Assembly: GCA_900314585.1 (NCBI GenBank)
Contig: OMVV01000012.1
Span: 1 to 32,839 of the forward strand
DNA length: 32,839 nucleotides
Origin: an uncultured Erysipelotrichaceae bacterium
GTDB taxonomy: Bacteria; Bacillota_I; Bacilli_A; RFN20; CAG-826
Reading direction: 5' to 3'
Under the pieces are notes generated by a model. It saw only the letters and a program-made list of their open reading frames with translations. It was not told the DNA's origin and did not search any database. Shown here in pieces: positions 5,526-25,365 of this stretch. Each line of letters begins with the position of its first letter. Position 1 is the first letter of the stretch. The position numbers and the translations under genes were made by a program.

Positions 5526-6049
5526 AAATAGAAGCCGCATATCAGGAATCTCTAAAAAAATTAATCAAAGAGAAACCACTTGATGAAATCAATGTGATTA
5601 TGCTTTGCGAACACGCGAATAGTAATCGTCAAACTTTTTACTATCACTTTAGAGACATATCTGATGTTGTTGAATCTATCTTCTTAAAAGCGAAAGTTGG
5701 TTACGCAAAGAAACTACTCGACTATGAGCAGATTCTTAAAGAAATGATTAATTATATTAATAACAACTATAATTTCGTTTCTAAAATCAACAAAAGTTAT
5801 TCCCAAGAGAAACTATATTCATTCTTGTTCTCGTATTTCTATGCTCGTATCGGTGGATTACTCAAAAACCATCTTGCTAACGGTAATGAAATCACAAGAT
5901 ACATGTCGACATTATCTGCTCATGAATTAGTGTTTTGGATCGGAAATAAGCGCAAAGAGAAGACTCCAGCGTTAATCAAAAGACTTAATACTGTATTCAT
6001 TTATTTTGTTAATCAATATCAATCGGATTTGAAGAGAAACATATTCTAA
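5522..6049 (+). CDS. TetR/AcrR-family transcriptional regulator
   Basis: 175 residues. The N-terminal TetR helix-turn-helix sits at about 10-55 (ending SNRQTFYYHFRDISDVVESIF, the typical YYHF recognition helix end). The C-terminal half is helical and divergent and would be the ligand/dimer domain; no ligand can be named. It sits between psuG and an iron alcohol dehydrogenase, overlapping both (ATGA with psuG, TAATG with the dehydrogenase). Translation is therefore coupled and it probably autoregulates this operon. DhaS-like TetR proteins often control alcohol or aldehyde metabolism; this is context only. Confidence 0.88.
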   Translation: MKIEAAYQESLKKLIKEKPLDEINVIMLCEHANSNRQTFYYHFRDISDVVESIFLKAKVGYAKKLLDYEQILKEMINYINNNYNFVSKINKSYSQEKLYSFLFSYFYARIGGLLKNHLANGNEITRYMSTLSAHELVFWIGNKRKEKTPALIKRLNTVFIYFVNQYQSDLKRNIF

Positions 6050-7218
6050 TGAAAGACTTTAATTTCGTATCTCCAACTCGAATTCATTTCGGCAAAAACG
6101 CGATGAACTTTTTGAGTGAAGAAATCAAAAATAAATACAAAAAAGTCTTACTTGTTTATGGTCAAAACTCGATCAAAAAGATTGGTGTCTATGATGCAGT
6201 AATTTCGCAATTATCATCAGCAAACGTCGAGTATTTTGAGATTTCTGGTGTTCGTCCAAACCCTGAAATTTCTAAAGTAAAAGAAGGTTTAAAGCTTGTT
6301 CGTGAAAACAACATAGATTTGATTCTTGCTGTTGGTGGTGGTTCAGTTATAGACACCGCAAAATCTATTGCTGCTTCTTTTTATTATGATGGCGATCCAT
6401 TCGATTTAAATCTTCATAAAGTTAAACCGGAAAAAGCATTACCTCTTGGAGTAGTTCTCACTATTTCTGCATCAGGATCTGAGTTATCTGATTCATGTGT
6501 TGTGATGAATGACAGCACTAAAGTTAAACAAGGATTTAATTCCGATGTCGTTCGACCAGCATTTGCAATTATGAATCCTGAATATACATACTCAGTTAGC
6601 AAGTATCAAACCGCTTGTGGAATCGTTGATATTATTTCTCACTCGCTCGAAAGATATTTTTCACCAAGTGAGAATCTCGAAGTTTCTGATTCGCTCGCAT
6701 TGTCGATTATGAAAGATACGATCGAAGCCGGAAAAGTCGCGATTAAAGATCCAAATAACTATGATGCTAGAGCAGCACTAATGCTATTAGGAGCATATTC
6801 ACATAATGGATTAACTTCGTTAGGCAAAGAAAAACAAATGCCAATCCATAAAATGGAACACGCTTTAAGTGCATATGATATTCGCATTGCTCACGGAGCA
6901 GGATTATCAATCCTCATCCCAGCCTGGATGGAAGCATCTTATAAAAATGATGTAGATAAATTTGTTAGATTCACCAAAGAAATTTTTAGTGTCGAAGAGA
7001 AAAATAAAATAAATACTGCTTTAAAAGGCATCGCATTATTGAGAGAATATTTTCAGTCAATAGGAATGTCTATTAGCTTAAAAGAAGTGGAATTATCATC
7101 TAAAGATATCCCTTCGTTAGTGGAAATGATGTTTGCTGACACACGTATGATTGGTCAAAAATCGATCAATCCACTATCTAAAGAAGATGTCGAAGAGATG
7201 CTTCAATCCATCTTATAG
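6049..7218 (+). CDS. Iron-containing alcohol dehydrogenase (butanol dehydrogenase-like)
   Basis: NAD(P)H-dependent reduction of an aldehyde or ketone to an alcohol. Full-length group III dehydrogenase (389 aa): the N-terminal nucleotide-binding domain has GGGSVIDTAKSIA, and the C-terminal helical domain carries metal ligands Asp194, His198, His267 and His282 (VDIISHS, MPIHKMEH, RIAHGAGLS). The start FVSPTRIHFGKNA is typical of the YqhD/BDH branch. It is translationally coupled to the TetR gene. The physiological substrate cannot be read from sequence; detoxification of a short aldehyde would fit a TetR-linked gene. Confidence 0.92.
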   Translation: MKDFNFVSPTRIHFGKNAMNFLSEEIKNKYKKVLLVYGQNSIKKIGVYDAVISQLSSANVEYFEISGVRPNPEISKVKEGLKLVRENNIDLILAVGGGSVIDTAKSIAASFYYDGDPFDLNLHKVKPEKALPLGVVLTISASGSELSDSCVVMNDSTKVKQGFNSDVVRPAFAIMNPEYTYSVSKYQTACGIVDIISHSLERYFSPSENLEVSDSLALSIMKDTIEAGKVAIKDPNNYDARAALMLLGAYSHNGLTSLGKEKQMPIHKMEHALSAYDIRIAHGAGLSILIPAWMEASYKNDVDKFVRFTKEIFSVEEKNKINTALKGIALLREYFQSIGMSISLKEVELSSKDIPSLVEMMFADTRMIGQKSINPLSKEDVEEMLQSIL

Positions 7219-7227
7219 GAGGCTATT

Positions 7228-8364
7228 ATGAAAAAAGAAGATGTCGCTAGTTTAGTTATCTATCTAATTATGATTGCTGCAGCAGTCATTGTTGGTTTAA
7301 CAGCAGTCAAAGGGGTATTCCAATCACATTATCATATTGATCTGGTTTCATACGCTTTTGCGCTTATCGTTATTTTCGTTGGACTACTCTTTAACATTAT
7401 TATGTTAGAAGCATTCCATGCATTGGGCGCAAAAATTGGTGGTTACCGCATCGTATCATTCAATGTTCTTGGTTTATGTTTTTATAAGAAAGAAGGTAAA
7501 TGGAAATTTGGTTTTAAAGATTTCGATGGTTTAACTGGCGAAACTAAAGTTGTTCCAAAGAATGAAAAATCAAAATTAACTCCATATATCTGGTTACCAG
7601 TTTTAATGTATTTTGTTGAACTTGTTGGTTGTATTGTTATTTACACATTATCAGAAGATAAAAACCTTAGTTTTGATTCCCCGCTTCACTGGTTAAGCGT
7701 CGCTGCAGTGTTATGGATTATTATTTCCTCAATGATTGCTCTATATAATTTAGTGCCAATCAAACTCGATTCAATGACCGATGGTTATCGTTTAACCTTA
7801 ATCGCTAAGAAAGAAAACATTGAAGCCTACAACGAACTATTAAGAATCGAAGAATGCCAAATGGAAGGCAAACCAATCGGCGAAGTCAAGATCTTCCCAC
7901 AAATCACCGAGTTCACCGCGAGTATCAACTTAATTTCAGTTTACGAAGAATTAAATAACGCTCACTATGATCGTGCCGAAGAATTAATCGACATGATTAT
8001 CGTTGATCCAAAGAAGGTTTCAACTCAAACATATAATCGTTTATTAGCCCAAAAACTTTATATCAAAATCATGACTCTTCCTTTGGAAGAAGTTAAAGAA
8101 TATTACGACAAGCAAATCAATGATTCTGTTCGTAAGTTCATCGCAAACGACCTATCAATGGAATCCTTAAGAGCCTATATTCTTATCGCTGGTCTTCTTG
8201 ATGATTCTAATGGTGAAATCGAATTCGCTAAATCTCGTAAAGAACGCGCATTAAAACGAAGCGTTCCATCTAGAGTAGCTATCGAACAAAAACTTTATGA
8301 AGAAGCATTAAACAAAGTTTACGAAGCTCATCCAGATTGGAAAGAAGAGAAAAATAAAAAATAA
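7228..8364 (+). CDS. Membrane protein resembling a degenerate M50 (site-2) protease, with helical C-terminal domain
   Basis: 378 residues with about four membrane segments (8-28, 40-68, 112-133, 153-175) and a soluble helical tail (190-378) that may be TPR-like. Two short motifs recall M50 intramembrane proteases. L60-E-A-F-H64 followed by ALGAKIGGYR stands where HExxH-(A)LGA-K-x-GxR is expected, with the first zinc His replaced by Leu. N174-LVPIKLD followed by TDG (184-186) recalls the NxxPxxxxDG motif. If the match is right, the protein has lost a zinc ligand and is probably a non-catalytic homologue. A strong Shine-Dalgarno (AGGAGG) lies at the end of the dehydrogenase gene, and the gene ends at a terminator. 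Function unknown. Confidence 0.6.
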   Translation: MKKEDVASLVIYLIMIAAAVIVGLTAVKGVFQSHYHIDLVSYAFALIVIFVGLLFNIIMLEAFHALGAKIGGYRIVSFNVLGLCFYKKEGKWKFGFKDFDGLTGETKVVPKNEKSKLTPYIWLPVLMYFVELVGCIVIYTLSEDKNLSFDSPLHWLSVAAVLWIIISSMIALYNLVPIKLDSMTDGYRLTLIAKKENIEAYNELLRIEECQMEGKPIGEVKIFPQITEFTASINLISVYEELNNAHYDRAEELIDMIIVDPKKVSTQTYNRLLAQKLYIKIMTLPLEEVKEYYDKQINDSVRKFIANDLSMESLRAYILIAGLLDDSNGEIEFAKSRKERALKRSVPSRVAIEQKLYEEALNKVYEAHPDWKEEKNKK

Positions 8365-8373
8365 GCAAAAGAA

Positions 8374-8406
8374 AACATCGCCAGATTAAACGGCGATGTT
8401 TTTTTC
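8374..8406. terminator. Rho-independent terminator, probably bidirectional
   Basis: Perfect 9-bp stem AACATCGCC (8374-8382) / GGCGATGTT (8392-8400) with a T run after it, and an A-rich run before it that would serve the leftward gene ending at 8408. Confidence 0.88.
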
Positions 8407-8407
8407 A

Positions 8408-8731
8408 TTAATCCTTTTCTTCGTATCTAGAATTATCTTCGGGTGGATAGTCTTCCGAAATTACATTTTTAGGCAAGACTTGTGGAGAACCTTTCTTTAC
8501 GAAATGTTCGCCTTCCTTAAGATGATTAGAGACCGAAGATTTTTCGTCTAGGAAATCCGCAACATCAAAATCTAGGATTCTACATAATTTCTTAACATCG
8601 CTTGGTTGAGCAACATATCCCGCACGAAGCTTTTTAATTAAGCCGAAGTGAGCGTGATATTTTTGTAAGAACTTATGCTCTGTTAATCCATAGGATTTAA
8701 CAAGATATTCAAATTTCTCTAAGACGGTCAT
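8408..8731 (-). CDS. Small helix-turn-helix protein, unknown role
   Basis: 107 residues. The N-terminal 60 or so look like a lambda-repressor/XRE-type fold: helices around LEKFEYLVKSYGL, a turn (EHKFLQKYHAHFGLIKKLRAG) and SDVKKLCRILDFDVADFL, the usual end of such domains. The C-terminal tail is acidic and probably disordered (PPEDNSRYEEKD). The gene starts 7 bp after the mscL stop on the same strand, so it is very likely co-transcribed with mscL and may be coupled to it. Target not known. It ends at the shared terminator at 8374-8406. Confidence 0.6.
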   Translation of the reverse strand: MTVLEKFEYLVKSYGLTEHKFLQKYHAHFGLIKKLRAGYVAQPSDVKKLCRILDFDVADFLDEKSSVSNHLKEGEHFVKKGSPQVLPKNVISEDYPPEDNSRYEEKD

Positions 8732-8738
8732 AGACTAT

Positions 8739-9395
8739 TTATTTCTTCTTTTCAGCAAGAAGATCACGAATTTGTGTTAATAATTCTTCAGTAGTTGGAG
8801 CAGGAACACCTGGTTCTGGTGGTACTGGTCTTTCTTCTGGGTGCTTCTTGTAATATTCTTCAAGGGCTTTTGCTTTGATAGCTTCATTCTTTCTTTGAAT
8901 GGAGTTAGCAACTTTGACAATGATGAATAAGACAATCGCAATGATAATAAAGCTGATGAATGCGGTTAATAATGCACCCCAGTCAATAACAGCGGCTCCG
9001 TTGAAAACGAATAAACCACCATGGGCAGTGTAGTTATCGCTAAGTTTGCCACTTCCGTAGATCAATGCTTGACCAGCATCATCGATACCAGCAGCTTGAC
9101 CAATTTGAAGCGCAACAGCGTCATAATCGCCTTTGGCGAATGTTTGACCAACACCATCAAGACCCTTTTGAGCATCATTTAAAGCTGGTAAAACTGTAAC
9201 CAAACCTTTTAAGCCGCCTGGGACGCCCCATGTAGCAACATTCATCAACATATTAACGAATGCGTTAACGATTGCTGAGAAGGCGCCGCCAATAACAACA
9301 CCAACAGCAAGCATGAAGGCATTTCCGCGATTGATGAATTCTTTAAATTCAGCAAAGAATCCTTTTACTTTTTTAGCTTTCTTTTCTTTTGCCAT
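8739..9395 (-). CDS. mscL: Large-conductance mechanosensitive channel MscL, long-loop form
   Basis: Tension-gated pore that releases solutes on osmotic downshock. N-terminal helix and TM1 (about 13-52: FKEFINRGNAFMLAVGVVIG, with the glycine-rich pore lining), TM2 at about 139-163, and the conserved C-terminal helix TTEELLTQIRDLLAEKK. The outer loop between TM1 and TM2 is about 85 residues, against roughly 25-30 in E. coli MscL, giving 218 instead of about 136 residues. A proline-rich linker (190-200) precedes the C-terminal helix. Good Shine-Dalgarno (GGAGGA, 9405-9410). Confidence 0.88.
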   Translation of the reverse strand: MAKEKKAKKVKGFFAEFKEFINRGNAFMLAVGVVIGGAFSAIVNAFVNMLMNVATWGVPGGLKGLVTVLPALNDAQKGLDGVGQTFAKGDYDAVALQIGQAAGIDDAGQALIYGSGKLSDNYTAHGGLFVFNGAAVIDWGALLTAFISFIIIAIVLFIIVKVANSIQRKNEAIKAKALEEYYKKHPEERPVPPEPGVPAPTTEELLTQIRDLLAEKKK

Positions 9396-9404
9396 TTATT
9401 TTTA

Positions 9405-9423
9405 TCCTCCGAGAGTGATTATA
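9405..9423 (-). promoter_or_regulatory. mscL promoter -10 and Shine-Dalgarno
   Basis: On the minus strand TATAAT (9423-9418), then after six bases the predicted start at 9411, immediately followed by GGAGGA (9410-9405) and the ATG at 9395. The 5' leader is only about 16 nt. No convincing -35. Confidence 0.6.
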
Positions 9424-9460
9424 ATTCAAAATCAAAATAAATTAAATAAATAATATATTT

Positions 9461-9469
9461 TGGTATAAT
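9461..9469 (+). promoter_or_regulatory. Extended -10 promoter of degV
   Basis: TGG-TATAAT at 9461-9469. The predicted start near 9476 leaves a short leader carrying GGAG (9480-9483), nine bases before the ATG at 9492. Confidence 0.7.
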
Positions 9470-9491
9470 GTCACATATTGGAGAAAAAAAT

Positions 9492-10343
9492 ATGAGTAAA
9501 ATCAAAATTGTTGGAGATTCCACTCTCGACTTATCTAAAGAATTATATGAAAAATATGATATGGATATCGTTCCATTAAACGTAAGCTTTGGTCAAGAAA
9601 CGTTTAAGGATGGTGTTTCTATTACCCGCGATCAACTCTATAAAGATGTTGAAAAATATAAATCATTACCAGCCACTTCTGCTCCAGGTCCACAAGTTTT
9701 CGAAGAAGTTTTCAGAAAATGGTTAGACCAAGGATATGAAGTCATTTATATTGGCATTGGTTCGACACTATCCACCGCTTTCCAAAGTGCGAATATTGCC
9801 AAGAACTCAATCGATAGTGACAAGATTTATCTTGTTGATAGTAAAAACCTTTCTTCAGGTTCTGGCTTACTCGCATTAAAGGCTGGCAAGCTTATTAAAG
9901 AAGGCAAAAGCGCGGCAGAAATCGTCAAAATCTTGGAAAAAGATGTTCCAAATGTTGTCGCTCAATTTAACGTTGAAACCCTCGATTATTTACATAAAGG
10001 TGGACGTTGCTCTGGCACCGCTAAAGTCTTAGGACACTTATTACATATCCGCCCACACATCTTAGTGAAAGACGGAAAACTTATCGTTTATAAAAAACCA
10101 CGTGGCAATATGAAAGTTGCCATTGAAGGACAAATCGAAGAGCTTAAAAACGCTCTTCCAAATGTCCAAATGGACAACATCATGATTACCGATTCTGGTG
10201 TCACTCCTGAAATTAGAGATTACTTTGTAAAACAAGTCTCAAAATATGTTGATCCAAAAATAATTAGACCCACTCCAGCAGGATGCGTCATCGCATCTCA
10301 CTGTGGACCTGGAACAATCGGATTACTGTTCATTAAAGACTAA
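9492..10343 (+). CDS. DegV-family fatty-acid-binding protein
   Basis: 283 residues, full length for DegV/FakB-type proteins, which bind a single fatty acid and in Gram-positives present it to the kinase FakA for phosphorylation. Visible signatures: IVGDSTLDLSKEL at the N-terminus, LPATSAPGPQVFEEVF, IGSTLSTAFQSA, and the C-terminal HCGPGTIGLLF. The ATG at 9492 was chosen because it has a Shine-Dalgarno. The in-frame ATG at 9468 lies on the -10 box, upstream of the predicted transcript start. Whether it works with a FakA cannot be seen here. Monocistronic between its own promoter and terminator. Confidence 0.92.
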   Translation: MSKIKIVGDSTLDLSKELYEKYDMDIVPLNVSFGQETFKDGVSITRDQLYKDVEKYKSLPATSAPGPQVFEEVFRKWLDQGYEVIYIGIGSTLSTAFQSANIAKNSIDSDKIYLVDSKNLSSGSGLLALKAGKLIKEGKSAAEIVKILEKDVPNVVAQFNVETLDYLHKGGRCSGTAKVLGHLLHIRPHILVKDGKLIVYKKPRGNMKVAIEGQIEELKNALPNVQMDNIMITDSGVTPEIRDYFVKQVSKYVDPKIIRPTPAGCVIASHCGPGTIGLLFIKD

Positions 10344-10347
10344 AGAA

Positions 10348-10370
10348 AAAAGGCTTTAAGCCTTTTCTTT
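10348..10370. terminator. Bidirectional terminator between degV and pmbA
   Basis: Stem AAAAGGC (10348-10354) / GCCTTTT (10360-10366) with loop TTTAA. T-rich after it on the plus strand, and a six-T run on the minus strand, so it can stop both convergent genes. Confidence 0.85.
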
Positions 10371-11702
10371 TTACTTACCTGTTATCGACATCTTTTTGAT
10401 GAGGATTGATGGGCAGGTTGTTGATGTTGATATAACCAGTTTGGAATTGTTTCCAACATCTTTAACGTTCATGAATACATTTAAGATGTTATCCGCAACA
10501 GTGATTAAAGATAACGGTTCTGCCAACTTACCATCATGGATCATAAATCCCGCTGATTGAAGTGAGAAGTTGCCACTTCTTTGATTCATGCCTGCGTGCA
10601 TACCTTGAAGGTCGTTGATATAGACACCTTCTTTGATGCCAGCAATCAATTCCTCTTCGCTCTTACGACCAGGTTTAACAAAGATTTGATTTAGTTTAGC
10701 GATTGTCTTTCCGCCAACATTTACTCCGTTACCGGTCGGTTCGACACCAGCCTTCTTCGCAGTTTCAAGAGTGTACAAATATGTTTTTAATACACCTTTT
10801 TTGATAATGTCACGTTTTTCAATCGCAACACCTTCATCATCAAAATAATCAAAGAAAATATTTTTCGCTAAGCCATTTTCTATGACATTAAGCTTCTTTG
10901 AAGCTACTTGAGTATCTAACTTACCAATAAAGTAAGATGATTTCTTTTCAACTTCTTCGTAATCGATTGGATTAAGGAAGAACTTAAGAAGAATAGATGC
11001 AGTTTCTGGATTGAGGATAACTGGATACTTTTTAGATTTACATTGGACCGAACCAAGTTTTTGAAGTGCGTCTTCTGCAACTTCTTTAACAAATTCATCT
11101 GGATTGAATTCGTTTGGATCCATAGACGCAAACACCTTAAAACCGGTGCGGATTTCTTCACTATCTTTTGCACTTATTTGAGCATAGTATGTGTATGTTC
11201 CGCTCTTAGCTTTTAGTTTTAATCCATAGGTATTCGCAAGCGTTGTTTCACCTACTTCTTTTTCAAAACCAATTGTGACAACTTCACTGATTCGTTTATC
11301 GTAGGCGAACAACTTCTTTTCAATATCTAAACATGTCTTAATTGCGTCGGAGATTTTCATGTCTTCAATTGTTTTGTTATAGACATTTTTCTTGTGATAT
11401 TTTTTGCTGCCTTTAAAGATAATTCCTTGTTCTTCTTTTTCAATTAATTTTGCAGTGTTTTTAATTGATTCAACGAGGAATTGCGCGGTATTTTTATCAA
11501 TTTGTTCAGTTGAAGCGGCACCGAATTTGCCGTTAATAATGCCACGCGCATCAATCGAAATATCTTCATGTTCGTTATAAGAATCTATCTCACCATGAAA
11601 AATAGAAAATGAGGTTGAAACGCCATGGGAATAAGATAAATCAGCAGCTTCAAAACCATTTGCTTTTGCGAGTTCAAAAAACTTCTTTTCATTTACTCTC
11701 AT
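10371..11702 (-). CDS. pmbA: TldE/PmbA-type subunit of the TldD-TldE metalloprotease
   Basis: 443 residues, PmbA/TldD modulator-of-gyrase family. It lacks the HExxxH motif and is the structural partner subunit. In E. coli the TldD-TldE heterodimer digests unfolded peptides, matures microcin B17 and degrades the antitoxin CcdA. Signatures: RGIINGKFGAASTEQ near the N-terminus, YTLETAKKAGVEPTGNG, and the C-terminal GMNQRSGNFSLQSAGFMI. The start overlaps the tldD stop as ATGA, so the two subunits are translationally coupled. It ends at the shared terminator with degV. Confidence 0.9.
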   Translation of the reverse strand: MRVNEKKFFELAKANGFEAADLSYSHGVSTSFSIFHGEIDSYNEHEDISIDARGIINGKFGAASTEQIDKNTAQFLVESIKNTAKLIEKEEQGIIFKGSKKYHKKNVYNKTIEDMKISDAIKTCLDIEKKLFAYDKRISEVVTIGFEKEVGETTLANTYGLKLKAKSGTYTYYAQISAKDSEEIRTGFKVFASMDPNEFNPDEFVKEVAEDALQKLGSVQCKSKKYPVILNPETASILLKFFLNPIDYEEVEKKSSYFIGKLDTQVASKKLNVIENGLAKNIFFDYFDDEGVAIEKRDIIKKGVLKTYLYTLETAKKAGVEPTGNGVNVGGKTIAKLNQIFVKPGRKSEEELIAGIKEGVYINDLQGMHAGMNQRSGNFSLQSAGFMIHDGKLAEPLSLITVADNILNVFMNVKDVGNNSKLVISTSTTCPSILIKKMSITGK

Positions 11703-13096
11703 TTAAGTTCTCCTCCATTTCCACCAACAGTGATTTCGCTAATTCTTAAAGTTGGTTGACCAACGTCGACTGGGATGTGTCCGCTAGCAGCACCACACAT
11801 ACCTTGAGCGCGTTTTAAATCATTACCAACCATATCGATTTTCATCAGGATGTCTTTGCCTTGGCCAATAAGGGAAGCACCACGAACCGGTTCACAAACT
11901 TTTCCATCACGGATGATATAAGCTTCACTACAAGCAAAGTTAAATTCACCAGTCGTAGGATTGACGCTTCCGCCACCAAGTGATTTTGCATATAAACCTA
12001 ACTTAGTGGCCTTGATGATATCTTCTGGATCACTTGTGCCGTTGTCGATATATGTGTTTGACATTCTCGAAGTTGGTTCAAACTTATATGATTGTCTACG
12101 ACAAGCACCATTACCAACTTCATTCATTCTTCTACCATTGAAATCATCAATTAAGTAAGAAGTTAAAATACCGTCTTTAATTAAGACGTTACGTTGAGTT
12201 TTGTTGCCTTCGTCATCAATATTATTGGAACCCCAACCATTGATAATTGTGCCATCATCAATTGCGCTCACCAAAGGTGAAGCGATTTGTTGGCCTTGTT
12301 TTCCAGAGAAAACCGAGATGTTTTTGGAAACAACTGACGCTTCAAGTGGGTGACCACAAGCTTCGTGGAACAAAACTCCACCGAAACCATTGCCGATAAC
12401 AACCGGCATCTTGCCACTTGGACATTCTTTTGCGCCTAACATAGTTATAGCTTGTTTAGCAGCAGTCTTTCCAAGTTCAACTGGATCGACACTGTTCTTG
12501 AAGAACTCATAACCCGCAGCGGCTCCTGGAGCAGCATAACCGGTTTCAATTTTTTCACCCTCACCAGCGATGCATTGGAAACCAATTCTCGCACGTTCGA
12601 TTTCATCTTTAAATGCGAAACCTTTGGAGTTATAGATCCAGACGTTTCGTTTTGAAATACCAATCGATGAGTATGTGCGAATGACACGCTTATCATATTC
12701 GGCCATTGCCTTAACACCTTTCTTAAGATAATCGACGATTTCTTTCTTATCGACACTTTCAAAAGGAATTTCGACAGGAGTTACGTTTTTAATTTTTTTA
12801 TTTTTTAAAGAGGTTACGAACACAGATTGTTTTTCAAAAAATGAGTTCGATAACGACTTAGCTAAATCGATTAAACCTTTTCGAGAAACATTATTCGTGT
12901 AGCCATAAACGGAACGGAATTTATAAAGGAGTCTGATCCCTGCTCCATATGTTTTATTGATCGATGCATTTTCGACTTTTCCGTTATCGATTGAAATGCC
13001 GCTTGAGAGCTTTTCTTCGATAAATATTTCAGCGAAATCTGCACCAGTTGCTAAACCGCAATTTAGAACTTCAATAGCTAATTTTTTTGAAATCAT
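11699..13096 (-). CDS. tldD: Metalloprotease subunit TldD
   Basis: 465 residues. The catalytic subunit carries the zinc motif HEACGH (His244, Glu245, His249) within GVLFHEACGHPLEAS, and the conserved C-terminal run MCGAASGHIPVDVGQP. The N-terminal part contains the usual GAGIRLLY motif. The start is preceded by AGGAGG at normal distance. The neighbour pmbA supplies the second subunit. No microcin, lasso or toxin-antitoxin gene is visible in the window, so the substrate is probably housekeeping peptides. Confidence 0.93.
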   Translation of the reverse strand: MISKKLAIEVLNCGLATGADFAEIFIEEKLSSGISIDNGKVENASINKTYGAGIRLLYKFRSVYGYTNNVSRKGLIDLAKSLSNSFFEKQSVFVTSLKNKKIKNVTPVEIPFESVDKKEIVDYLKKGVKAMAEYDKRVIRTYSSIGISKRNVWIYNSKGFAFKDEIERARIGFQCIAGEGEKIETGYAAPGAAAGYEFFKNSVDPVELGKTAAKQAITMLGAKECPSGKMPVVIGNGFGGVLFHEACGHPLEASVVSKNISVFSGKQGQQIASPLVSAIDDGTIINGWGSNNIDDEGNKTQRNVLIKDGILTSYLIDDFNGRRMNEVGNGACRRQSYKFEPTSRMSNTYIDNGTSDPEDIIKATKLGLYAKSLGGGSVNPTTGEFNFACSEAYIIRDGKVCEPVRGASLIGQGKDILMKIDMVGNDLKRAQGMCGAASGHIPVDVGQPTLRISEITVGGNGGELK

Positions 13097-18362: not shown

Positions 18363-19292
18363 ATGGGATTTATAAAACTTCCGTTATCAATTGCAGTTGC
18401 TTCGATGGCTCACGGAGACTCTAAGTTTAATGATTCACATCGAACCTATGGTCATATCAATAATAAAAAAGATTTGAACTACTGTTCAGATGGCGAAAAA
18501 GAGCACTGCTTAGATATTTTGACTAACCCCAACAAATCGAACAGAATTGCTTTGTTTTACATTCATGGTGGAGCCTACGTTTATGGCTATAAAGAAGATA
18601 GTCGCATTTTCACTTCGTGGTTTGTCGATAAAGGTTTCACTGTTATTCCAATCAACTATCGACTTGCTAGAAAAGATGGAAGCATTTCAATAATGGATCA
18701 AGTCAAAGATGCAGTCGAAGCTTTAAAATTCGTCGTTGAAAATGCAGTTCACTATGGAGTTAGTTTAAAGAACCTGTTCTTAATGGGCGATTCTGCGGGC
18801 GGTCATATCTGTTTAATGCTCGACATTTTGTCTAAGAGCGAAGAAGCAAGAAAATATTATCAATTAGAAGATTTTCCAAAAGTTGAAATCAAAGGTGTCG
18901 CACTAAATTCGCCTATGTACGACTACATGCTCGTGAGAGCAGCCGCGAAAGAAGTCTTATCTAAACGTAGTCGTCGTTGGATGCTTTCAAAACAATATCT
19001 TGATGATGAGTTCATAAATAAAAATAATCCTCGTTATTATTTCAAAAACGGTTTTAAACCATCTCCATTATTTGCATCAACATCATATTATGATTATTTC
19101 AATAATCAATCGCAAAGACTCAAGAAAGATTGTGATGCATTAGGCATCAATATTGATTATCTTTTTGAGGCCAGTCCTGACAAGAGTATTGGTCACATAT
19201 ATAACCACTTCCATTTTGAAGATGAAGAAGGAAAAAGATGTAATAACATGATGGTGGATTTCTTTATTAGGAATTCCAAAGTTGATAAATAG
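18363..19292 (+). CDS. Alpha/beta hydrolase, HSL/esterase type
   Basis: 309 residues. Oxyanion-hole motif HGGA (68-71) and nucleophile elbow GDSAGG (Ser144), with a C-terminal His in SIGHIYNHFHF, as in hormone-sensitive-lipase-like carboxylesterases (alpha/beta hydrolase fold 3). It would hydrolyse short acyl esters; the real substrate is not visible. No signal peptide is evident, though residues 1-15 are hydrophobic. ATG 18363 was chosen over the in-frame GTG at 18303 because the -10 box lies between them. The short gap to the decarboxylase (26 bp, no terminator) allows read-through. Confidence 0.82.
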   Translation: MGFIKLPLSIAVASMAHGDSKFNDSHRTYGHINNKKDLNYCSDGEKEHCLDILTNPNKSNRIALFYIHGGAYVYGYKEDSRIFTSWFVDKGFTVIPINYRLARKDGSISIMDQVKDAVEALKFVVENAVHYGVSLKNLFLMGDSAGGHICLMLDILSKSEEARKYYQLEDFPKVEIKGVALNSPMYDYMLVRAAAKEVLSKRSRRWMLSKQYLDDEFINKNNPRYYFKNGFKPSPLFASTSYYDYFNNQSQRLKKDCDALGINIDYLFEASPDKSIGHIYNHFHFEDEEGKRCNNMMVDFFIRNSKVDK

Positions 19293-19299
19293 ATTTTTA

Positions 19300-19305
19300 T
19301 ATAAT
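19300..19305 (+). promoter_or_regulatory. -10 box of the polyamine genes
   Basis: TATAAT at 19300-19305. The predicted start near 19312 gives a leader of only about 7 nt before the ATG at 19319, with no Shine-Dalgarno. A TTGATA at 19282 is too close (12 bp) to be a -35. Confidence 0.5.
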
Positions 19306-19318
19306 AAAATTTTGAATT

Positions 19319-21946
19319 ATGAGTAAGCTTGATCAGAACAAAACACCGTATTTAGACGCTTTAAAAAAATACGTTTCAAAAGACGTTCTTCCATTAGATG
19401 TCCCTGGACACCATATGGGAAATGTCGCTAATAAATTTAAATCATTTATTGGCGAACAACTTTATCGTTGTGATATTAACGCTCCAATTGGAATGGATAA
19501 TTTAGCTAATCCAACTGGAGTTCTAAAAGAAGCAGAAAAGTTAATGGCAGATTTTTGTCATGCTGACGATGCATTCTTTTTAATCAATGGTACGAGTAGC
19601 GGAATTCTTGCAATGATTATGGCTACTTGCCACGCTAATCAGAAGATTATTATTCCGAGAAACGTTCATAAATCGATCGTTTCCGCTTTAATTCTTTCTG
19701 GCGCATCTCCTGTTTACATCATGCCAAAGCTTGATGCCGAACTTGAAATCGCTAACCAACCATCAGTTGATGATTACATCAATGCGATGCATAGATATCC
19801 AACCGCTAGAGCTGTATTTGTTATTAACCCAACCTACTTTGGTGCGGTTGGTGATTTAAAACGAATTGTCAAGGAAGCTCATAAACGCGGAATGGTTGTT
19901 CTTGTTGATGAAGCCCATGGTGCTCACTATTACTTTGATAAACAAGGACCAGTTTCTGCAATGGATGCTGGAGCAGATATGTCTTCTGTCTCATTCCACA
20001 AAACCGGTGGAAGCTTAACTCAGTCCAGCGTTCTTCTTCTTAAATCAAAAGTTATCGATAAAGCGATTGTTCAAAAGACAATCAATATCTTGAATACAAC
20101 CTCTCCATCCACTATTTTGATGGCCTCACTTGATGCAGCTCGTCAATATGTTGCAACCAATGGTGAACAAAACATGAAAAGGGTTCATGAACTAAGCAAA
20201 TATGCTCGTGAACAAATTGCAAAGATCAAAGGCTTTGTTCCATGTAATAAAGATCACTTCATTGAAAGAGGTTGCTACGATTATGATGAGACAAAACTCG
20301 TCATTAAATTAGACCATCTTGATATCAATGGTTTTGAACTTTATCGTCTTTTAAAAGAGAAGTATGAAATCCAAGTTGAACTCGCTGAAACATATGTCAT
20401 TATGGGCATCTTGGCGATCGGTTCAGACAAAGCACAAATTACAAGATTTATTCGAGCTTTGCGCGATGTTTCGAAAAATCACTATCACAAAAATCTCGAT
20501 TATCAACGTCACGCTTTCGGGGTGGATTTTCCATTCCAGATTTGTCGTCCACGTGTTGCATATCACGCTCCTGGAAAGATCGTTCCACTTGGCGATGCAG
20601 TCAATGCAATCTCCAAGGAATCAATCATGATTTATCCACCAGGAATTCCATTAATTGTTCCAGGTGAAGTTTTCACAAAAGACTTAGTAAATCGTATTGA
20701 AGAATATAAGAAACTTGGTGTCACCATATTATCTGATTATGGTGCAACAAAAGTTAATGTTATCGACACTGATAATTGGTCTAGATTCGGTTCTTACCGT
20801 AACAAATTAAGCGATTATCTTGTTAAACGTATCACCACTCCTCGAGCGGATGGATTTAGAATGCCATTTGAAGGTGATAAGCATAGTGGCACAATCATTC
20901 TTCTTCCATATCGAAAAGATACTTGGAGAAACGGTGCTAAACCAGCTCTTGAATGTTTCAAAAAAGTTATTACTTCAATTGCGAAGTATGAACCTGTCTA
21001 TGTTGGCATCGATCCAACAATCTATAACAAGGTTTATAAGGAATTCAGTGATATTAAAAACGTTTTCCCAATTCGTATTAAATATAACGACTCCTGGGCC
21101 AGAGACAATTGTCCTATCTTTGTCACCAGCGAAAATCAAATGCGTGTGGTCGACTTTAGATTTAATGCCTGGGGCGGTGAAGTTGATGGGCTTTATTCCA
21201 ACTACAAAGATGATGACTTATTAACTAAAAGGTTATCCAAACACTTTGGAGTGGAACGCTATTATCTTGATGACTTTGTTTTAGAAGGTGGCTCTATTCA
21301 CGTTGATGGAGAAGGAACATGCATAGTTACAAAAGCATGTCTTCTTTCCAAAGGAAGAAACCCACATCTTAACCAATTAGAAATCGAAGAAACCTTGAAG
21401 GTTTATCTTAATGTTTCCAAAGTTATCTGGTTAGATAATGGCATTTATGAAGACGAAACAAATGAACACGTTGACAATATGGCTTGTTTCATTGAACCAG
21501 GCGTTGTTGCTTTAGCGTGGACAAACGATAAGAGTGATCCTCAATATAAATTCTCACAAGCTGCGTACAAGGTTTTAACAAGCAGTGAAGATGCTAAGGG
21601 AAGAAAACTTAAAGTTATCAAAATAAAACTTCCTAAACCTTTATATATGAATAAGAATGAGGCCAAAGGAATTAAAGTTGGCCGATATGATGCAAAGCCT
21701 AGACCAGAAGGTTCACGTCTTGCTGCCTCATATATCAACTTCTATCAAGGTGAAAAATTCGTTATTCTTCCAGGCTTTGGAGTGCCAGAAGATAAACTCG
21801 CAAAAGAACAATTAAAGAAACTTTATCCTAACAAGGATATCATCCAGATTAACACTCGAGAAATCCTTTTAGGCGGTGGTAATATTCACTGTATTACAAT
21901 GCAAATTCCATATAACAAGGAGTTTAAAAACAAAAATGAAAATTAA
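19319..21946 (+). CDS. Fused arginine decarboxylase - agmatine deiminase
   Basis: 875 residues with two complete enzymes. Residues 1 to about 490 are a PLP-dependent Orn/Lys/Arg decarboxylase of the short SpeA/YaaO type. It shows PGHHMGN, the DEAHGAH cofactor aspartate, SVSFHKTGG with the PLP lysine Lys228, and the C-terminal YPPGIP (439-444). Residues about 505-875 are a full agmatine deiminase (about 370 aa, normal size): DGFRMPFEGDKHSG, WARDNCP (593-599), ETNEHVDN (His717) and GGGNIHC with nucleophile Cys858. Arginine would go to agmatine and then N-carbamoylputrescine in one chain. The next, overlapping gene completes the route to putrescine, which supports arginine rather than lysine or ornithine as substrate. 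No frameshift or stop at the junction. Confidence 0.93.
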   Translation: MSKLDQNKTPYLDALKKYVSKDVLPLDVPGHHMGNVANKFKSFIGEQLYRCDINAPIGMDNLANPTGVLKEAEKLMADFCHADDAFFLINGTSSGILAMIMATCHANQKIIIPRNVHKSIVSALILSGASPVYIMPKLDAELEIANQPSVDDYINAMHRYPTARAVFVINPTYFGAVGDLKRIVKEAHKRGMVVLVDEAHGAHYYFDKQGPVSAMDAGADMSSVSFHKTGGSLTQSSVLLLKSKVIDKAIVQKTINILNTTSPSTILMASLDAARQYVATNGEQNMKRVHELSKYAREQIAKIKGFVPCNKDHFIERGCYDYDETKLVIKLDHLDINGFELYRLLKEKYEIQVELAETYVIMGILAIGSDKAQITRFIRALRDVSKNHYHKNLDYQRHAFGVDFPFQICRPRVAYHAPGKIVPLGDAVNAISKESIMIYPPGIPLIVPGEVFTKDLVNRIEEYKKLGVTILSDYGATKVNVIDTDNWSRFGSYRNKLSDYLVKRITTPRADGFRMPFEGDKHSGTIILLPYRKDTWRNGAKPALECFKKVITSIAKYEPVYVGIDPTIYNKVYKEFSDIKNVFPIRIKYNDSWARDNCPIFVTSENQMRVVDFRFNAWGGEVDGLYSNYKDDDLLTKRLSKHFGVERYYLDDFVLEGGSIHVDGEGTCIVTKACLLSKGRNPHLNQLEIEETLKVYLNVSKVIWLDNGIYEDETNEHVDNMACFIEPGVVALAWTNDKSDPQYKFSQAAYKVLTSSEDAKGRKLKVIKIKLPKPLYMNKNEAKGIKVGRYDAKPRPEGSRLAASYINFYQGEKFVILPGFGVPEDKLAKEQLKKLYPNKDIIQINTREILLGGGNIHCITMQIPYNKEFKNKNEN

Positions 21947-22805
21947 AGTCGCGATTACACAGATGAGTTGTTCATCAAACTATGAAGAAAACATTAAGAA
22001 AGCTGATGCGATGGTTGAAAAATGCGCCAAAGCAGGGGCGAACATCATTCTTCTTCAAGAATTATTTGAAAATTTATATTTTTGCCAAGTCGAAGACTAT
22101 GCGAAATTTGATTTAGCGGAAGTTAGATCTTCCTCAAAAACAATTAAACACTTCCAAGAAGTTGCGAAGAAATATAATGTCGTTCTTCCAATTTCTTTCT
22201 TTGAAAAATCAGGCGCTAACTACTTTAATTCATTAGTGGTTATCGATGCTGATGGAAAAGATTTAGGTTTATATCGTAAAACCCATATTCCAACCGGACA
22301 ATGTTATGAAGAAAAATTTTATTTTTCTCCAGGCGATACAGGCTTTAAAGTTTTCAAAACGAAGTTTGGCAAAGTCGGTATCGGCATTTGTTGGGATCAG
22401 TGGTTCCCAGAAACTGCTCGTATCTTAGCTCTTAAGGGCGCACAAATCCTTTTATACCCAACCGCGATTGGTTCTGAACCAGTTTTAGTTAGAGATTCCA
22501 TGCCACACTGGAGAAACACGATGTGTGGTCATGCTGCCGCAAACATCATCCCTGTTTGTGCCTCTAACCGTGTGGGTGAAGAAAAAGCTCCTGGCTCAAG
22601 CATGGTTTTCCAAGGTTATTCTTTCATTGCCGATCCTCATGGTGAAGTTGTTGAAGAACTTAACCGCACCGAAGAAGGATTTAGAATCCACGAATTTAAT
22701 TTAAGTGAAATCGATAAAGAAAGAGTGGGCTGGGGAGTCTTTAGAGATCGCCGCCCTGAAGCGTATAAAGAAATCGTTGGTTTCGCAAAAGACATAGATG
22801 AATAA
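21936..22805 (+). CDS. aguB: N-carbamoylputrescine amidase
   Basis: Nitrilase-superfamily enzyme of 289 residues that hydrolyses N-carbamoylputrescine to putrescine, ammonia and CO2. The catalytic triad is visible: Glu42 (LLQELFENLYF), Lys115 (YRKTHIP) and Cys152 (GICWDQWFPE). The last motif and the YEEKFYFSPGD stretch are typical of AguB rather than other amidases. The start at 21936 follows AAGGAG (21917-21922) and overlaps the fusion gene by 11 bp, so the two are coupled. An in-frame upstream ATG at 21876 would add residues unlike the family and was rejected. Confidence 0.95.
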   Translation: MKIKVAITQMSCSSNYEENIKKADAMVEKCAKAGANIILLQELFENLYFCQVEDYAKFDLAEVRSSSKTIKHFQEVAKKYNVVLPISFFEKSGANYFNSLVVIDADGKDLGLYRKTHIPTGQCYEEKFYFSPGDTGFKVFKTKFGKVGIGICWDQWFPETARILALKGAQILLYPTAIGSEPVLVRDSMPHWRNTMCGHAAANIIPVCASNRVGEEKAPGSSMVFQGYSFIADPHGEVVEELNRTEEGFRIHEFNLSEIDKERVGWGVFRDRRPEAYKEIVGFAKDIDE

Positions 22806-23718
22806 AAACGATCGAAAAAAAGAATTCCACACCGGAAAAGTTAATCCCAATTCAATCAAAGAATTTGTTGTTCATGAAGAATGTGAACTATTAGATTTTT
22901 TACTATCAAAATATCCAAAATTATCGAGAAATGCCGTGAAATCTTTACTTTCCAATCACCAAGTTGGTGTCAATGGAGCGCCGGTTTCCCAATATAATTT
23001 ATTGCTCACAAAAGAAGATATAGTCATCGTTTCGAAAATGAGAATTTCCAAGAAAGTTAGGAATAATTTACCTATCATTTTCGAGGACAATGATTTGATC
23101 GTAATTAATAAACCAAGCGGACTTTTATCGATTGCTTCTGATCGCGAAAAAGGTCGTACTGCTTATCGAATGGTTAATGATTATGTTCAGCAAAAAGATA
23201 AGCACAACCGCATCTATGTTGTTCACCGCCTTGATGAAGATACCTCAGGAGTTTTAGTGTTTGCGAAAAATCCGAAAATCAAAGACGCTCTTCAGAAGAA
23301 TTGGAATGATATTGTTTTGAAACGTGGTTACTATGCCATTGTCGAAGGAAATATGGAGAAAGATGAAGATACTTTCGTTGATTATCTCCAAGAAAATTCT
23401 TTGAACTTAATGTATGTAACAAAAGATCACAAAAACGGAAAGAAGTGCGTCACTCATTACAAGCTTATCCGCAAGAACAAATACTATTCCTTATTAGATG
23501 TCGATATTGATTCGGGTCGTAAAAACCAAATCCGTGTTCAACTCGGCCATCGTAATCACTATGTGATTGGTGATGATAAGTATGGTGAACCAGCTAATCC
23601 TCTTAAACGTTTAGGGCTTCATGCCTATTGCTTAAAATTCGTGAATCCATTAAGCAAGAAGACAATGACATTCAACGCTCCAATTCCACCAGAATTTAAC
23701 AAATTGTTTGATAAATAA
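22798..23718 (+). CDS. RluA-family pseudouridine synthase
   Basis: 306 residues. An N-terminal S4 RNA-binding domain (about 28-82: LLDFLLSKYPKLSRNAVKSL) precedes the RluA catalytic domain with HRLDEDTSG (catalytic Asp146) and GRKNQIRVQLGH. It isomerises uridine to pseudouridine in 23S rRNA or tRNA; the RluD-type layout suggests rRNA, but the site cannot be assigned. It overlaps the amidase gene by 8 bp, so it is expressed with the polyamine genes, and ends at a strong terminator. Confidence 0.92.
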   Translation: MNKNDRKKEFHTGKVNPNSIKEFVVHEECELLDFLLSKYPKLSRNAVKSLLSNHQVGVNGAPVSQYNLLLTKEDIVIVSKMRISKKVRNNLPIIFEDNDLIVINKPSGLLSIASDREKGRTAYRMVNDYVQQKDKHNRIYVVHRLDEDTSGVLVFAKNPKIKDALQKNWNDIVLKRGYYAIVEGNMEKDEDTFVDYLQENSLNLMYVTKDHKNGKKCVTHYKLIRKNKYYSLLDVDIDSGRKNQIRVQLGHRNHYVIGDDKYGEPANPLKRLGLHAYCLKFVNPLSKKTMTFNAPIPPEFNKLFDK

Positions 23719-23734
23719 ATTATTGTCGATTTTA

Positions 23735-23770
23735 AAAAGTGTGTGCTTTGTTGCGCACGCTTTTAATTTT
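23735..23770 (+). terminator. Rho-independent terminator after the polyamine/RluA operon
   Basis: 12-bp stem AAAAGTGTGTGC (23735-23746) / GCGCACGCTTTT (23753-23764) with two G-T pairs and a TTTGTT loop, followed by a T-rich stretch. Confidence 0.9.
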
Positions 23771-23787: not shown

Positions 23788-25365
23788 GTGTTTTTAGAGT
23801 CGTTAGTTAAACTAAAAGAATCATTCCTATCTACCCTTCCTGTTGTTGTGGTAGTTCTTTTATTAAATTTCATCCCAGGAATTGGCTTTGATTTAACTAC
23901 TACTCAACTCGTTATCTTTGGCATTTCAGCCGCATTAGTCGTTGTTGGTATGTGGCTATTCAATGTTGGCGCCGATTCATCAATGCATAAGATGGGTGAA
24001 CTTGTAGGTTCATCTTTAACAAGGAAGCAAAGCATGGTTTTGCTTGTTGTTATCTTCTTCTTATTTGGCGTGTTTATTACAGTTGCCGAACCAGATTTAT
24101 CAGTTCTCGCTAATCAAGTTCCAACCATCCCAAGCTTCTTATTAATCGGGTTAATTAGCTTTGGTGTTGGAGCATTTATCGTTATCGGCGCATTAAGAAT
24201 TCTTTTTAAAAGGAACCTAAAGGTTTGGTTATTAGGATTCTATGGATTAATGTTCGCATTGTGCTTATTAATCGACAAATCTTATATTCCACTATCTTTA
24301 GATAGTGGCGGTGTTACAACTGGCCCAATCACTGTTCCGTTTATTCTTGCGGTTGGTGTTGGTATCGCTACATCACGCGCAGGTAATAAATCAACATCTG
24401 ATTCCTTTGGTCTTGTTGCATTTGCTTCAATCGGACCAATCTTAATGGTGCTCATTTTGGCATTGGTGTTTAGAGATAACTTAACTTACGATTTCCAAAT
24501 CAATTCATTGATTGATCCAAATAGTCCTGAATCCGCAGCCGGCTTTAACGGAGCAACTGTTGGTAACGCATTTCTTAGGGCCCTTCTTCCACATGGTTCT
24601 GAATATGGCGCTTTACTAAGTGTGACCATATCCTTATCACCAATCTTATTATTCTTTGTTGTGTACGAACTTATCTTTATTAAATTATCTTCAAGAACTA
24701 TGTTCTCGATTATATTTGGTATCGGCGTTTCCTATGTTGGCTTGATCTTATTTATGACCGCTGTCAGCGCTGGATTCTTACCAATCGGTCAAAAATTAGG
24801 TCTCGAACTTGCTCAAGGTGAACTCTGGATCTTGGTTCTTGTTGGAGCGTTCTTAGGTATCGTTGCAGTATTTGCCGAACCAGCTGTTCACGTTTTAACA
24901 AACCAAATGACAGAAATCAGTGATGGTTCAATTAGTAGAGTCACCGTTGTTCTCGCATTAGCGTTTGGCAATGGTGTCGCAATCGTCTTATCTGTATTAA
25001 GAATTTATTTCGGTGTTGACTTCAGTTTGTTATACATCGTTGTGCCAGGTTACATTTTGGCATTTGCATTATCATTTGCTGTTCCAGACATTTACACTGC
25101 AATGGCGTTTGACTCTGGCGGTGTTGTCTCTGGTCCAATGAACACGACTTTCATATTACCGTTTGCGATTGGTGCGTGTTATTCCTTCTGGGGTAACGAC
25201 CTTATTATGACCAATGCTTTTGGCACGATTGCAGTGGTCGCATTAATGCCGCTTATCATGATTCAACTTATCGGTTTAAGTGCATCAATAAAAATACGTG
25301 CTCAATACCGAATTGCTCGCAATCGTATTCGTGAAGAATTCGATGATCAAATCATTCATTTTTAG
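23788..25365 (+). CDS. DUF1538 membrane protein with tandem duplication (putative transporter)
   Basis: 525 residues, almost wholly membrane helices (about 12-14). Two parallel halves can be seen. AEPDLSVLANQ (100-110) with LDSGGVTTGP (171-180) is repeated as AEPAVHVLTNQ (363-373) with FDSGGVVSGP (441-450), at similar spacing. The polar DSGG motifs inside hydrophobic helices look like substrate or ion sites. The fold and the two downstream PII-like genes suggest a regulated transporter; the substrate is unknown. GTG start with no Shine-Dalgarno, placed by the -10 box. The stop overlaps the AGGAGG of the next gene. Confidence 0.82.
   Translation: MFLESLVKLKESFLSTLPVVVVVLLLNFIPGIGFDLTTTQLVIFGISAALVVVGMWLFNVGADSSMHKMGELVGSSLTRKQSMVLLVVIFFLFGVFITVAEPDLSVLANQVPTIPSFLLIGLISFGVGAFIVIGALRILFKRNLKVWLLGFYGLMFALCLLIDKSYIPLSLDSGGVTTGPITVPFILAVGVGIATSRAGNKSTSDSFGLVAFASIGPILMVLILALVFRDNLTYDFQINSLIDPNSPESAAGFNGATVGNAFLRALLPHGSEYGALLSVTISLSPILLFFVVYELIFIKLSSRTMFSIIFGIGVSYVGLILFMTAVSAGFLPIGQKLGLELAQGELWILVLVGAFLGIVAVFAEPAVHVLTNQMTEISDGSISRVTVVLALAFGNGVAIVLSVLRIYFGVDFSLLYIVVPGYILAFALSFAVPDIYTAMAFDSGGVVSGPMNTTFILPFAIGACYSFWGNDLIMTNAFGTIAVVALMPLIMIQLIGLSASIKIRAQYRIARNRIREEFDDQIIHF

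What the first reader, a model, noticed from the sequence alone, without database searches (positions are those of the whole stretch)
19319..22805. Arginine decarboxylase fused to agmatine deiminase, followed by the amidase: a full putrescine route in two ORFs
Seen: one uninterrupted 875-residue frame has the PLP lysine motif (Lys228) and decarboxylase C-terminus, then at about 505-875 a complete agmatine deiminase with His717 and nucleophile Cys858. The next ORF overlaps by 11 bp and has the Glu42/Lys115/Cys152 triad of N-carbamoylputrescine amidase. Known: the three activities convert arginine to putrescine in three steps, normally by separate proteins. Inference: the fusion passes agmatine directly between sites and commits arginine to polyamine synthesis rather than to the carbamoyl-phosphate (energy) branch, since no putrescine carbamoyltransferase is nearby.
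Basis: partly seen in the sequence, partly recalled or inferred. Interest (0 to 1): 0.75.

Follow-up and report, generated by a model that had tools for sequence, protein, structure and literature searches.

The report
Fused arginine-to-carbamoylputrescine enzyme
A gut bacterium with a very small genome carries the first two enzymes that turn arginine into the polyamine putrescine joined as one protein, with the third enzyme encoded right behind it; the join is real and shared by dozens of related species, and no earlier description turned up, though each enzyme by itself is ordinary.

Summary
ORF 19319-21946 (875 aa) joins a short ("ancestral form") Orn/Lys/Arg decarboxylase to a full agmatine deiminase. 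The next ORF (21936-22805) is N-carbamoylputrescine amidase. It is not an assembly error: 68 of 279 genomes of the order have the full-length fusion, two more occur in another family of the class, and 52 of 52 distinct full-length fusions read here keep both active sites. The linker is always 30-32 residues. Some relatives have the genes side by side but unfused; one origin of the fusion is not rejected. The decarboxylase substrate was not assayed, but context points to arginine: of 26 related genomes that I picked, the 15 with agmatine deiminase lack an agmatinase-family gene, and the 11 with decarboxylase but no detected deiminase all have one. In the window's genome no agmatinase, AR-fold ornithine decarboxylase, SpeD, NspC or recognised putrescine carbamoyltransferase was found, so this operon looks like its only putrescine route. 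Direct passing of agmatine between the sites is untested. Nearest published relative: the Fusobacterium ornithine decarboxylase-arginase fusion, whose second half is reported as probably inactive. New variant of a known kind.

The parts
19282..19310 (+). promoter-like TTGATA-17-TAAAAT ending 8 bases before the ATG, so the transcript may be leaderless
   Evidence: consensus scan; 19 such sites in the region against a mean of 26.7 in shuffles, so weak by itself; similar boxes directly before the ATG in near relatives L003 and L004, read by eye
19319..21946 (+). fused CDS, 875 aa: short-form decarboxylase (most likely of arginine) joined to agmatine deiminase
19319..20740 (+). decarboxylase part, residues 1-474 (OKR_DC_1, OKR_DC_1_C); PLP lysine 228 at 20000-20002
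20741..20833 (+). linker, residues 475-505, predicted helix 494-503; 30-32 residues in 52 of 52 distinct full-length fusions read
20834..21910 (+). agmatine deiminase part, residues 506-864; Asp596, Glu656, His717, Asp719, Cys858 (Cys codon 21890-21892)
21936..22805 (+). N-carbamoylputrescine amidase (aguB), 289 aa, Glu42/Lys115/Cys152; overlaps the fusion by 11 bp
22798..23718 (+). RluA-family pseudouridine synthase, overlapping aguB by 8 bp; probably the last gene of the operon (inferred)
23735..23764 (+). terminator-like hairpin (12 pairs) after rluA
   Evidence: consensus scan only

Best explanation
The 875-residue protein is a bifunctional enzyme. Its N-terminal PLP domain decarboxylates arginine to agmatine; its C-terminal domain deiminates agmatine to N-carbamoylputrescine and ammonia. 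The separate amidase made from the overlapping next gene hydrolyses that to putrescine, ammonia and CO2. In this small-genome Bacilli lineage (no argH found, so arginine is probably imported) the operon is the only recognised source of putrescine, which looks like the end-product polyamine. The fusion most likely arose by joining neighbouring genes of an operon of the kind still seen in relatives; covalent joining keeps the two activities at 1:1. Shown here: domains, intact catalytic residues, conservation, gene order, which partner enzymes were and were not found. Inferred: substrates, activity, physiology, direction of the fusion event.
For: Family models over cut-off for deiminase and amidase. 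K228, E450, D596, E656, H717, D719, C858 identical in 52 of 52 distinct full-length fusions and E/K/C in 77 of 77 distinct amidases, so all three sites are under selection. An amidase match follows the fusion in each fetched locus whose contig reaches that far (in L025 the match stops at residue 239). Partner split among 26 genomes that I picked: deiminase-bearing 0 of 15 with a ureohydrolase-family gene, decarboxylase-only 11 of 11; in 5 of those 11 it lies within about 80 bases of the decarboxylase match (positions), and the two that I classified are agmatinases (TIGR01230 over cut-off). Unfused neighbouring genes in L073, L074, L076 and L125-L129. One origin of the fusion not rejected (p-AU 0.47 and 0.32). 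The Streptococcus enzyme SP_0916 prefers arginine (PMC7531197, passages). No match in the own genome for PF00491 (70), PF02675 (71), PF02784 (89), nspC (29), arcA (39) and argH (76).
Against: No assay. No NCBIfam decarboxylase model reaches its cut-off; the best is ornithine decarboxylase PRK13578 (80 of 794 bits), with arginine decarboxylase PRK15029 at 76 of 1167, all long-form models. Short-form decarboxylases include ODC, LDC and O/LDC, and in one published case neighbours misled (LDC beside SpeD/SpeE; PMC8503589, passages). On the tree the window's decarboxylase clade is apart from both the Fusobacterium ODC type and the Streptococcus type, so the tree does not decide the substrate. One relative, L028 (G241), has its fusion frame broken by an apparent frameshift inside the deiminase part near a contig end. 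A PF01564 (spermidine synthase-type) match over the Pfam cut-off exists in the own genome (52 bits, positions 16-112 of 186); no NCBIfam model recognises its 359-aa ORF, but a spermidine branch is not strictly excluded. Residues about 21-70 of the model are poor. Most genomes are MAGs; absences could be gaps.
Confidence: 0.86

Rival explanations
1. The decarboxylase half prefers lysine or ornithine, and the deiminase half acts on agmatine from outside.
For: Ancestral-form ODC, LDC and O/LDC exist (PMC8503589, passages); the Fusobacterium fusion is an ODC; the best, though far sub-threshold, NCBIfam decarboxylase match is an ODC model.
Against: In the 26 genomes that I picked, the decarboxylase is accompanied either by an agmatinase-family gene or by a deiminase, never both and never neither. 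The Bacilli short forms tested in PMC8503589 section 7 were ADCs. The own genome gave no argH and no AR-fold ODC.
Confidence: 0.06
2. One half has lost catalysis and only scaffolds or regulates the other, as reported for the arginase-like half of the Fusobacterium fusion.
For: Published precedent (PMC8503589 section 10 passages).
Against: The listed catalytic residues of both halves are invariant in 52 of 52 full-length fusions; domain conservation is equal, 0.74 and 0.75, against 0.61 in the linker (28 fusions); the own genome shows no clear second copy of either enzyme, only one weak partial match (28% over residues 74-213, E 5e-5).
Confidence: 0.04
3. The fusion channels agmatine from the decarboxylase site to the deiminase site.
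For: Linker length fixed at 30-32 residues in 52 of 52 full-length fusions, with a predicted helix.
Against: No measurement and no coordinates of active-site distance here; fixed linkers also serve stoichiometry or folding; oligomeric state unknown.
Confidence: 0.15
4. The operon serves mainly acid resistance or nitrogen supply (two ammonia, two CO2 per arginine, putrescine exported) rather than polyamine synthesis.
For: No SpeD in 26 of 26 genomes and no nspC in the own genome, so no spermidine route was recognised.
Against: No antiporter identified in the operon; antiporters were not searched genome-wide. Putrescine alone can be the cell's polyamine.
Confidence: 0.2
5. Assembly or binning artefact.
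For: Most records are MAGs; the G010 copy (another family, 74% complete) nests among family f1 copies and may be transfer or misbinning.
Against: Same junction in 52 distinct full-length proteins from many separate assemblies.
Confidence: 0.01

Closest known systems
Fusobacterium nucleatum ornithine decarboxylase-arginase-like fusion (PMC8503589)
   Same: short-form AAT-fold decarboxylase fused at its C-terminus to an enzyme of arginine/agmatine metabolism
   Different: second domain there is arginase/agmatinase-like and reported as probably inactive; here it is an agmatine deiminase (PAD_porph) with its catalytic residues; a different bacterial phylum
Ancestral-form arginine decarboxylase SpeA (B. 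subtilis, S. pneumoniae SP_0916)
   Same: short form without the REC wing, PLP lysine motif, OKR_DC_1 and OKR_DC_1_C
   Different: known ones are free-standing; 39-40% identical to the Streptococcus gallolyticus and S. henryi homologues (L035, L036)
Agmatine deiminase AguA/AIH (Arabidopsis 3h7c, E. faecalis 2jer)
   Same: TIGR03380 over cut-off; TM-score 0.94 to 3h7c on the target's length
   Different: known ones are separate proteins
Lachnospiraceae/Streptococcus/Roseburia polyamine clusters (L032-L036, L039)
   Same: decarboxylase, deiminase and amidase genes in one cluster
   Different: separate genes, with three further genes between or after them (clusters 14-16; I take these as a spermidine branch, inferred and not scanned)
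SpeD1-SpeD2 fusions (PMC10407285) and SpeD-aminopropyltransferase fusions (PMC6356823), both seen as passages
   Same: fusions of polyamine enzymes
   Different: other enzymes and other steps

Membership tests
Ancestral-form AAT-fold arginine decarboxylase (aADC) | PLP lysine in SxHK motif, OKR_DC_1 and OKR_DC_1_C domains, no REC wing | tested here: met
   K228 in 52 of 52; the domain starts at residue 9, leaving no room for a wing
Ancestral-form AAT-fold arginine decarboxylase (aADC) | arginine is the preferred substrate | not testable with these tools
   context only: agmatinase-family gene or deiminase alongside in 26 of 26 picked genomes; no NCBIfam decarboxylase model passes its cut-off
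Agmatine deiminase (TIGR03380) | score over curated cut-off | tested here: met
   454.4 against 381.8 bits
Agmatine deiminase (TIGR03380) | catalytic Cys, His, Asp and Glu residues | tested here: met
   D596, E656, H717, D719, C858 in 52 of 52; that these are the catalytic positions is recalled, from no call
N-carbamoylputrescine amidase (TIGR03381) | score over cut-off and Glu-Lys-Cys triad | tested here: met
   420.5 against 410.25 bits; triad in 77 of 77
Fusobacterium decarboxylase-arginase fusion | C-terminal arginase/agmatinase-like domain | tested here: not met
   C-terminal domain is PAD_porph; no PF00491 match in the own genome
Agmatine deiminase fermentation system (AgDI) | putrescine carbamoyltransferase (TIGR04384) | tested here: not met
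   the only carbamoyltransferase found scores 234 against 500 bits and sits elsewhere in the genome
Agmatine deiminase fermentation system (AgDI) | carbamate kinase and agmatine/putrescine antiporter | not tested
   not searched genome-wide; none in the operon

The most novel reading that the evidence does not exclude
The fusion is a dedicated N-carbamoylputrescine synthase that hands agmatine from one site to the other, fixed once in a lineage of minimal-genome gut Bacilli that use the agmatine deiminase route instead of agmatinase and stop at putrescine; it would be the first such two-step enzyme of the agmatine route.
Probability: 0.15. Interest if true: 0.65.

Novelty: new variant of a known kind. 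Interest (0 to 1): 0.45.

Why it matters
It is a widespread fusion of two consecutive polyamine enzymes with both active sites kept, not found in print in the library searched, and accompanied in the phylogeny by its unfused operon form and by relatives that carry agmatinase. That makes the question of what enzyme fusion buys (channelling, stoichiometry, or a smaller genome) directly testable by comparing natural fused and unfused orthologues. It also gives a simple marker of putrescine production from arginine in poorly cultured gut Bacilli.

Tried and rejected
Artefact: rejected, same junction in 52 distinct full-length proteins. Putrescine carbamoyltransferase elsewhere in the genome: the one carbamoyltransferase found lies next to a YgeY-type hydrolase, below the cut-off of each model it matched. 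Spermidine synthase: the PF01564 match in the own genome is over the Pfam cut-off (52 bits) but covers 97 of 186 positions, and its 359-aa ORF has no NCBIfam match at 1e-15; not counted as a spermidine synthase, not excluded either. YaaO-type paralogue: rejected, the genome has one clear homologue, about 10 kb from tmk and paired with deiminase and amidase. Fission instead of fusion for the unfused neighbours: not excluded. The g44 decarboxylases carry a tail like the fusion linker. In the decarboxylase tree they fall outside the f1 fusion clade; in the deiminase tree they group with f27 and f2 deiminases, where the neighbours are not one clade, so adjacency was gained or lost more than once. 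Riboswitch: the only Rfam match in the window is the SRP RNA at 1518-1615. Plasmid and phage collections: no record covers 80% of the fusion in one place. Literature: no decarboxylase-deiminase fusion found in the listings (open-licence PMC only, no preprints); of the listed papers I opened passages or sections of PMC8503589, PMC10407285, PMC7531197 and PMC6356823 only. Searches gave nothing of use.

Limits on counts: in the class search only the two best candidates per genome were scored, so a deiminase in G372 or G459 may have been missed; the other nine decarboxylase-only genomes had all first-look candidates scored. Related genomes are not independent, so the 0 of 15 against 11 of 11 split is not a probability. 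Besides the 68 full-length fusions there are five incomplete ones: G107, G117, G120 and G242 cut by contig ends, G241 (L028) with an apparent frameshift. flags 1-2 stop codons in some full-length rows; in the nine of these that I fetched (L054, L059, L061, L062, L065, L066, L067, L075, L082) one open frame holds both domains; the rest were not fetched under those handles. One search prints 68 fused rows, but many are the same locus fetched twice; searches use distinct proteins. My first motif count (K 48, H 40, C 51 of 52; amidases 48 of 91) came from too narrow patterns; the alignment gives 52 of 52 and 77 of 77. Trees: near-duplicates were dropped by hand before (62 and 60 rows kept). Loci fetched but not analysed: L089, L090, L097-L100, L102.
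Full report
What is there. The frame at 19319-21946 encodes 875 residues without interruption. Residues 9-325 and 404-455 match the major and C-terminal domains of Orn/Lys/Arg decarboxylases and 514-864 match PAD_porph; NCBIfam calls the second part agmatine deiminase over its curated cut-off, while no decarboxylase model reaches its cut-off on the first part. The predicted model (41-row alignment, mean pLDDT 86.4, pTM 0.76; residues about 21-70 poor) matches Arabidopsis agmatine deiminase 3h7c with TM-score 0.94 on the target's length, and for the first part lysine, arginine and ornithine decarboxylases. The next gene, 21936-22805, overlaps by 11 bp and is N-carbamoylputrescine amidase over cut-off. 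A pseudouridine synthase gene overlaps that by 8 bp, and a terminator-like hairpin follows.

Where it lives. The window lies in a 1.04-Mb, 93% complete genome. A genus-mate, G099 (L050), has the same fusion and amidase identities as locus L010, which is Candidatus Fiminaster equi. A paper passage gives that genus as GTDB UBA3207, order RFN20, family CAG-826 (PMC8957277; passage only). So the host is most likely of that genus; this is inference. Record titles of relatives name goat reticulum, sheep and buffalo rumen and horse faeces, among others.

How common it is. In the order search 140 of 279 genomes match; by my count of the listed rows 68 have the fusion full length (67 in the window's family f1, one, G010, in f2). 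Four more are cut by contig ends, and one, G241 (L028), is broken by an apparent frameshift inside the deiminase part near its contig end. Two further full-length copies are in family f23. No other full-length copy outside the families just named appeared in the 395-genome class search or the 392-genome phylum search (these overlap), nor in plasmid or phage records. In genus g19 and others only the decarboxylase is found.

Both halves are kept. In 52 of 52 distinct full-length fusions read here, K228, E450, D596, E656, H717, D719 and C858 are identical, as are Glu/Lys/Cys in 77 of 77 distinct amidases. Mean column identity in 28 fusions is 0.74 (decarboxylase), 0.75 (deiminase) and 0.61 (linker). 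The stretch between the two domains is 30, 31 or 32 residues in all 52 (27, 18 and 7) and holds a predicted helix.

Origin. In family f27 and genus g44 decarboxylase, deiminase and amidase genes stand side by side, the first two overlapping, but are not fused; the g44 decarboxylase ends in a tail like the fusion linker, and its deiminase starts in another frame about 20 bases before the decarboxylase stop. In the decarboxylase tree, fused and neighbouring forms together make one clade (99/95), and the f1 fusions plus G010's one clade (100/99); f23 is unresolved. In the deiminase tree the fusions fall in three lines of unresolved order, and the unfused neighbours are not one clade, with f2's stand-alone deiminases among them. 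One origin for the fusions is not rejected for either half (p-AU 0.47 and 0.32), nor is it shown. G010's copy nests among f1 copies: transfer or misbinning.

Substrate. This was not assayed. The best evidence is partner choice. Of 26 genomes that I picked from the hits, the 15 with a deiminase (nine fused, five neighbouring, one separate) gave no ureohydrolase-family match, and the 11 with decarboxylase but no detected deiminase all gave one. In five of those 11 it lies within about 80 bases of the decarboxylase match (positions), and the two that I classified are agmatinases over cut-off. Two alternative ways to use agmatine, never together, is what an arginine decarboxylase predicts. Published support: the four enzymes of Table 2 of PMC8503589 (two Bacilli, one Fusobacteria, one archaeon) prefer arginine, and the authors suggest that Bacilli may have only ADC (sections 7 and 8); SP_0916 prefers arginine (PMC7531197 passages). 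Against: the family also holds ODC and LDC, context misled once, the best sub-threshold NCBIfam match of the decarboxylase half is an ODC model, and the tree does not place the window clade with either known type.

Metabolic setting. In the own genome no match was found for agmatinase/arginase, AR-fold decarboxylase (absent in 8 of 9 fusion genomes, present in G417), SpeD, nspC, arginine deiminase or argH. A partial PF01564 match exists, of unclear function. The one carbamoyltransferase is not a recognised putrescine type. So the operon is the only putrescine route recognised, arginine is probably imported, and putrescine is probably the end product. Absences rest on a 93% complete genome. Antiporters and carbamate kinase were not searched.

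Comparison. Nearest published is the Fusobacterium ODC-arginase-like fusion, whose arginase half is called unlikely to be active (PMC8503589 section 10 passages). The present fusion differs in second domain, in keeping both active sites, and in lineage. No report of a decarboxylase-deiminase fusion was found; that library has no preprints and few subscription papers. Verdict: a real, conserved, probably undescribed fusion; each enzyme is ordinary; new variant of a known kind.

Noticed in passing
window 23788-25365: A single 525-aa protein with two DUF1538 domains, like the UmpA and UmpB antiporter subunits joined in one chain (below both cut-offs), followed by a 147-aa ORF with no Pfam match and a P-II-like protein.
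   Followed up: no
L096 (G000:C7:15000-31000), about 5465-12464: A run of genes with serine ammonia-lyase, carbamoyltransferase, YgeY-type hydrolase, two PLP-lyase-like genes and a xanthine-dehydrogenase-like FAD subunit, resembling anaerobic purine/YgeWXY clusters (the resemblance is recalled). Only this genome's run was scanned; a carbamoyltransferase match is in 7 of 14 genomes checked, split in one, G202.
   Followed up: partly
window 19282-19318 and relatives L003, L004: Promoter-like boxes sit directly before the ATG with no ribosome-binding site seen by eye, suggesting a leaderless mRNA for the fusion gene.
   Followed up: partly
window 22798-23718: The RluA-family gene overlaps the amidase gene and a homologue lies downstream in many relatives (cluster 2, 24 loci); no link to polyamines known to me.
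   Followed up: no
window 8739-9395: A 218-aa protein with two separate stretches matching the mechanosensitive channel MscL, longer than the 123-position model.
   Followed up: no
L101 (G202:C53): One fusion-bearing relative, G202, also has an arginine deiminase just under the arcA cut-off (484 of 489 bits) but over that of PRK01388; the other 13 of 14 checked genomes have no arcA match.
   Followed up: no
L028, about 3792-3846: In this relative the deiminase part continues in another frame after residue about 637 of the fusion, near the contig end: a real break or a sequencing error.
   Followed up: no
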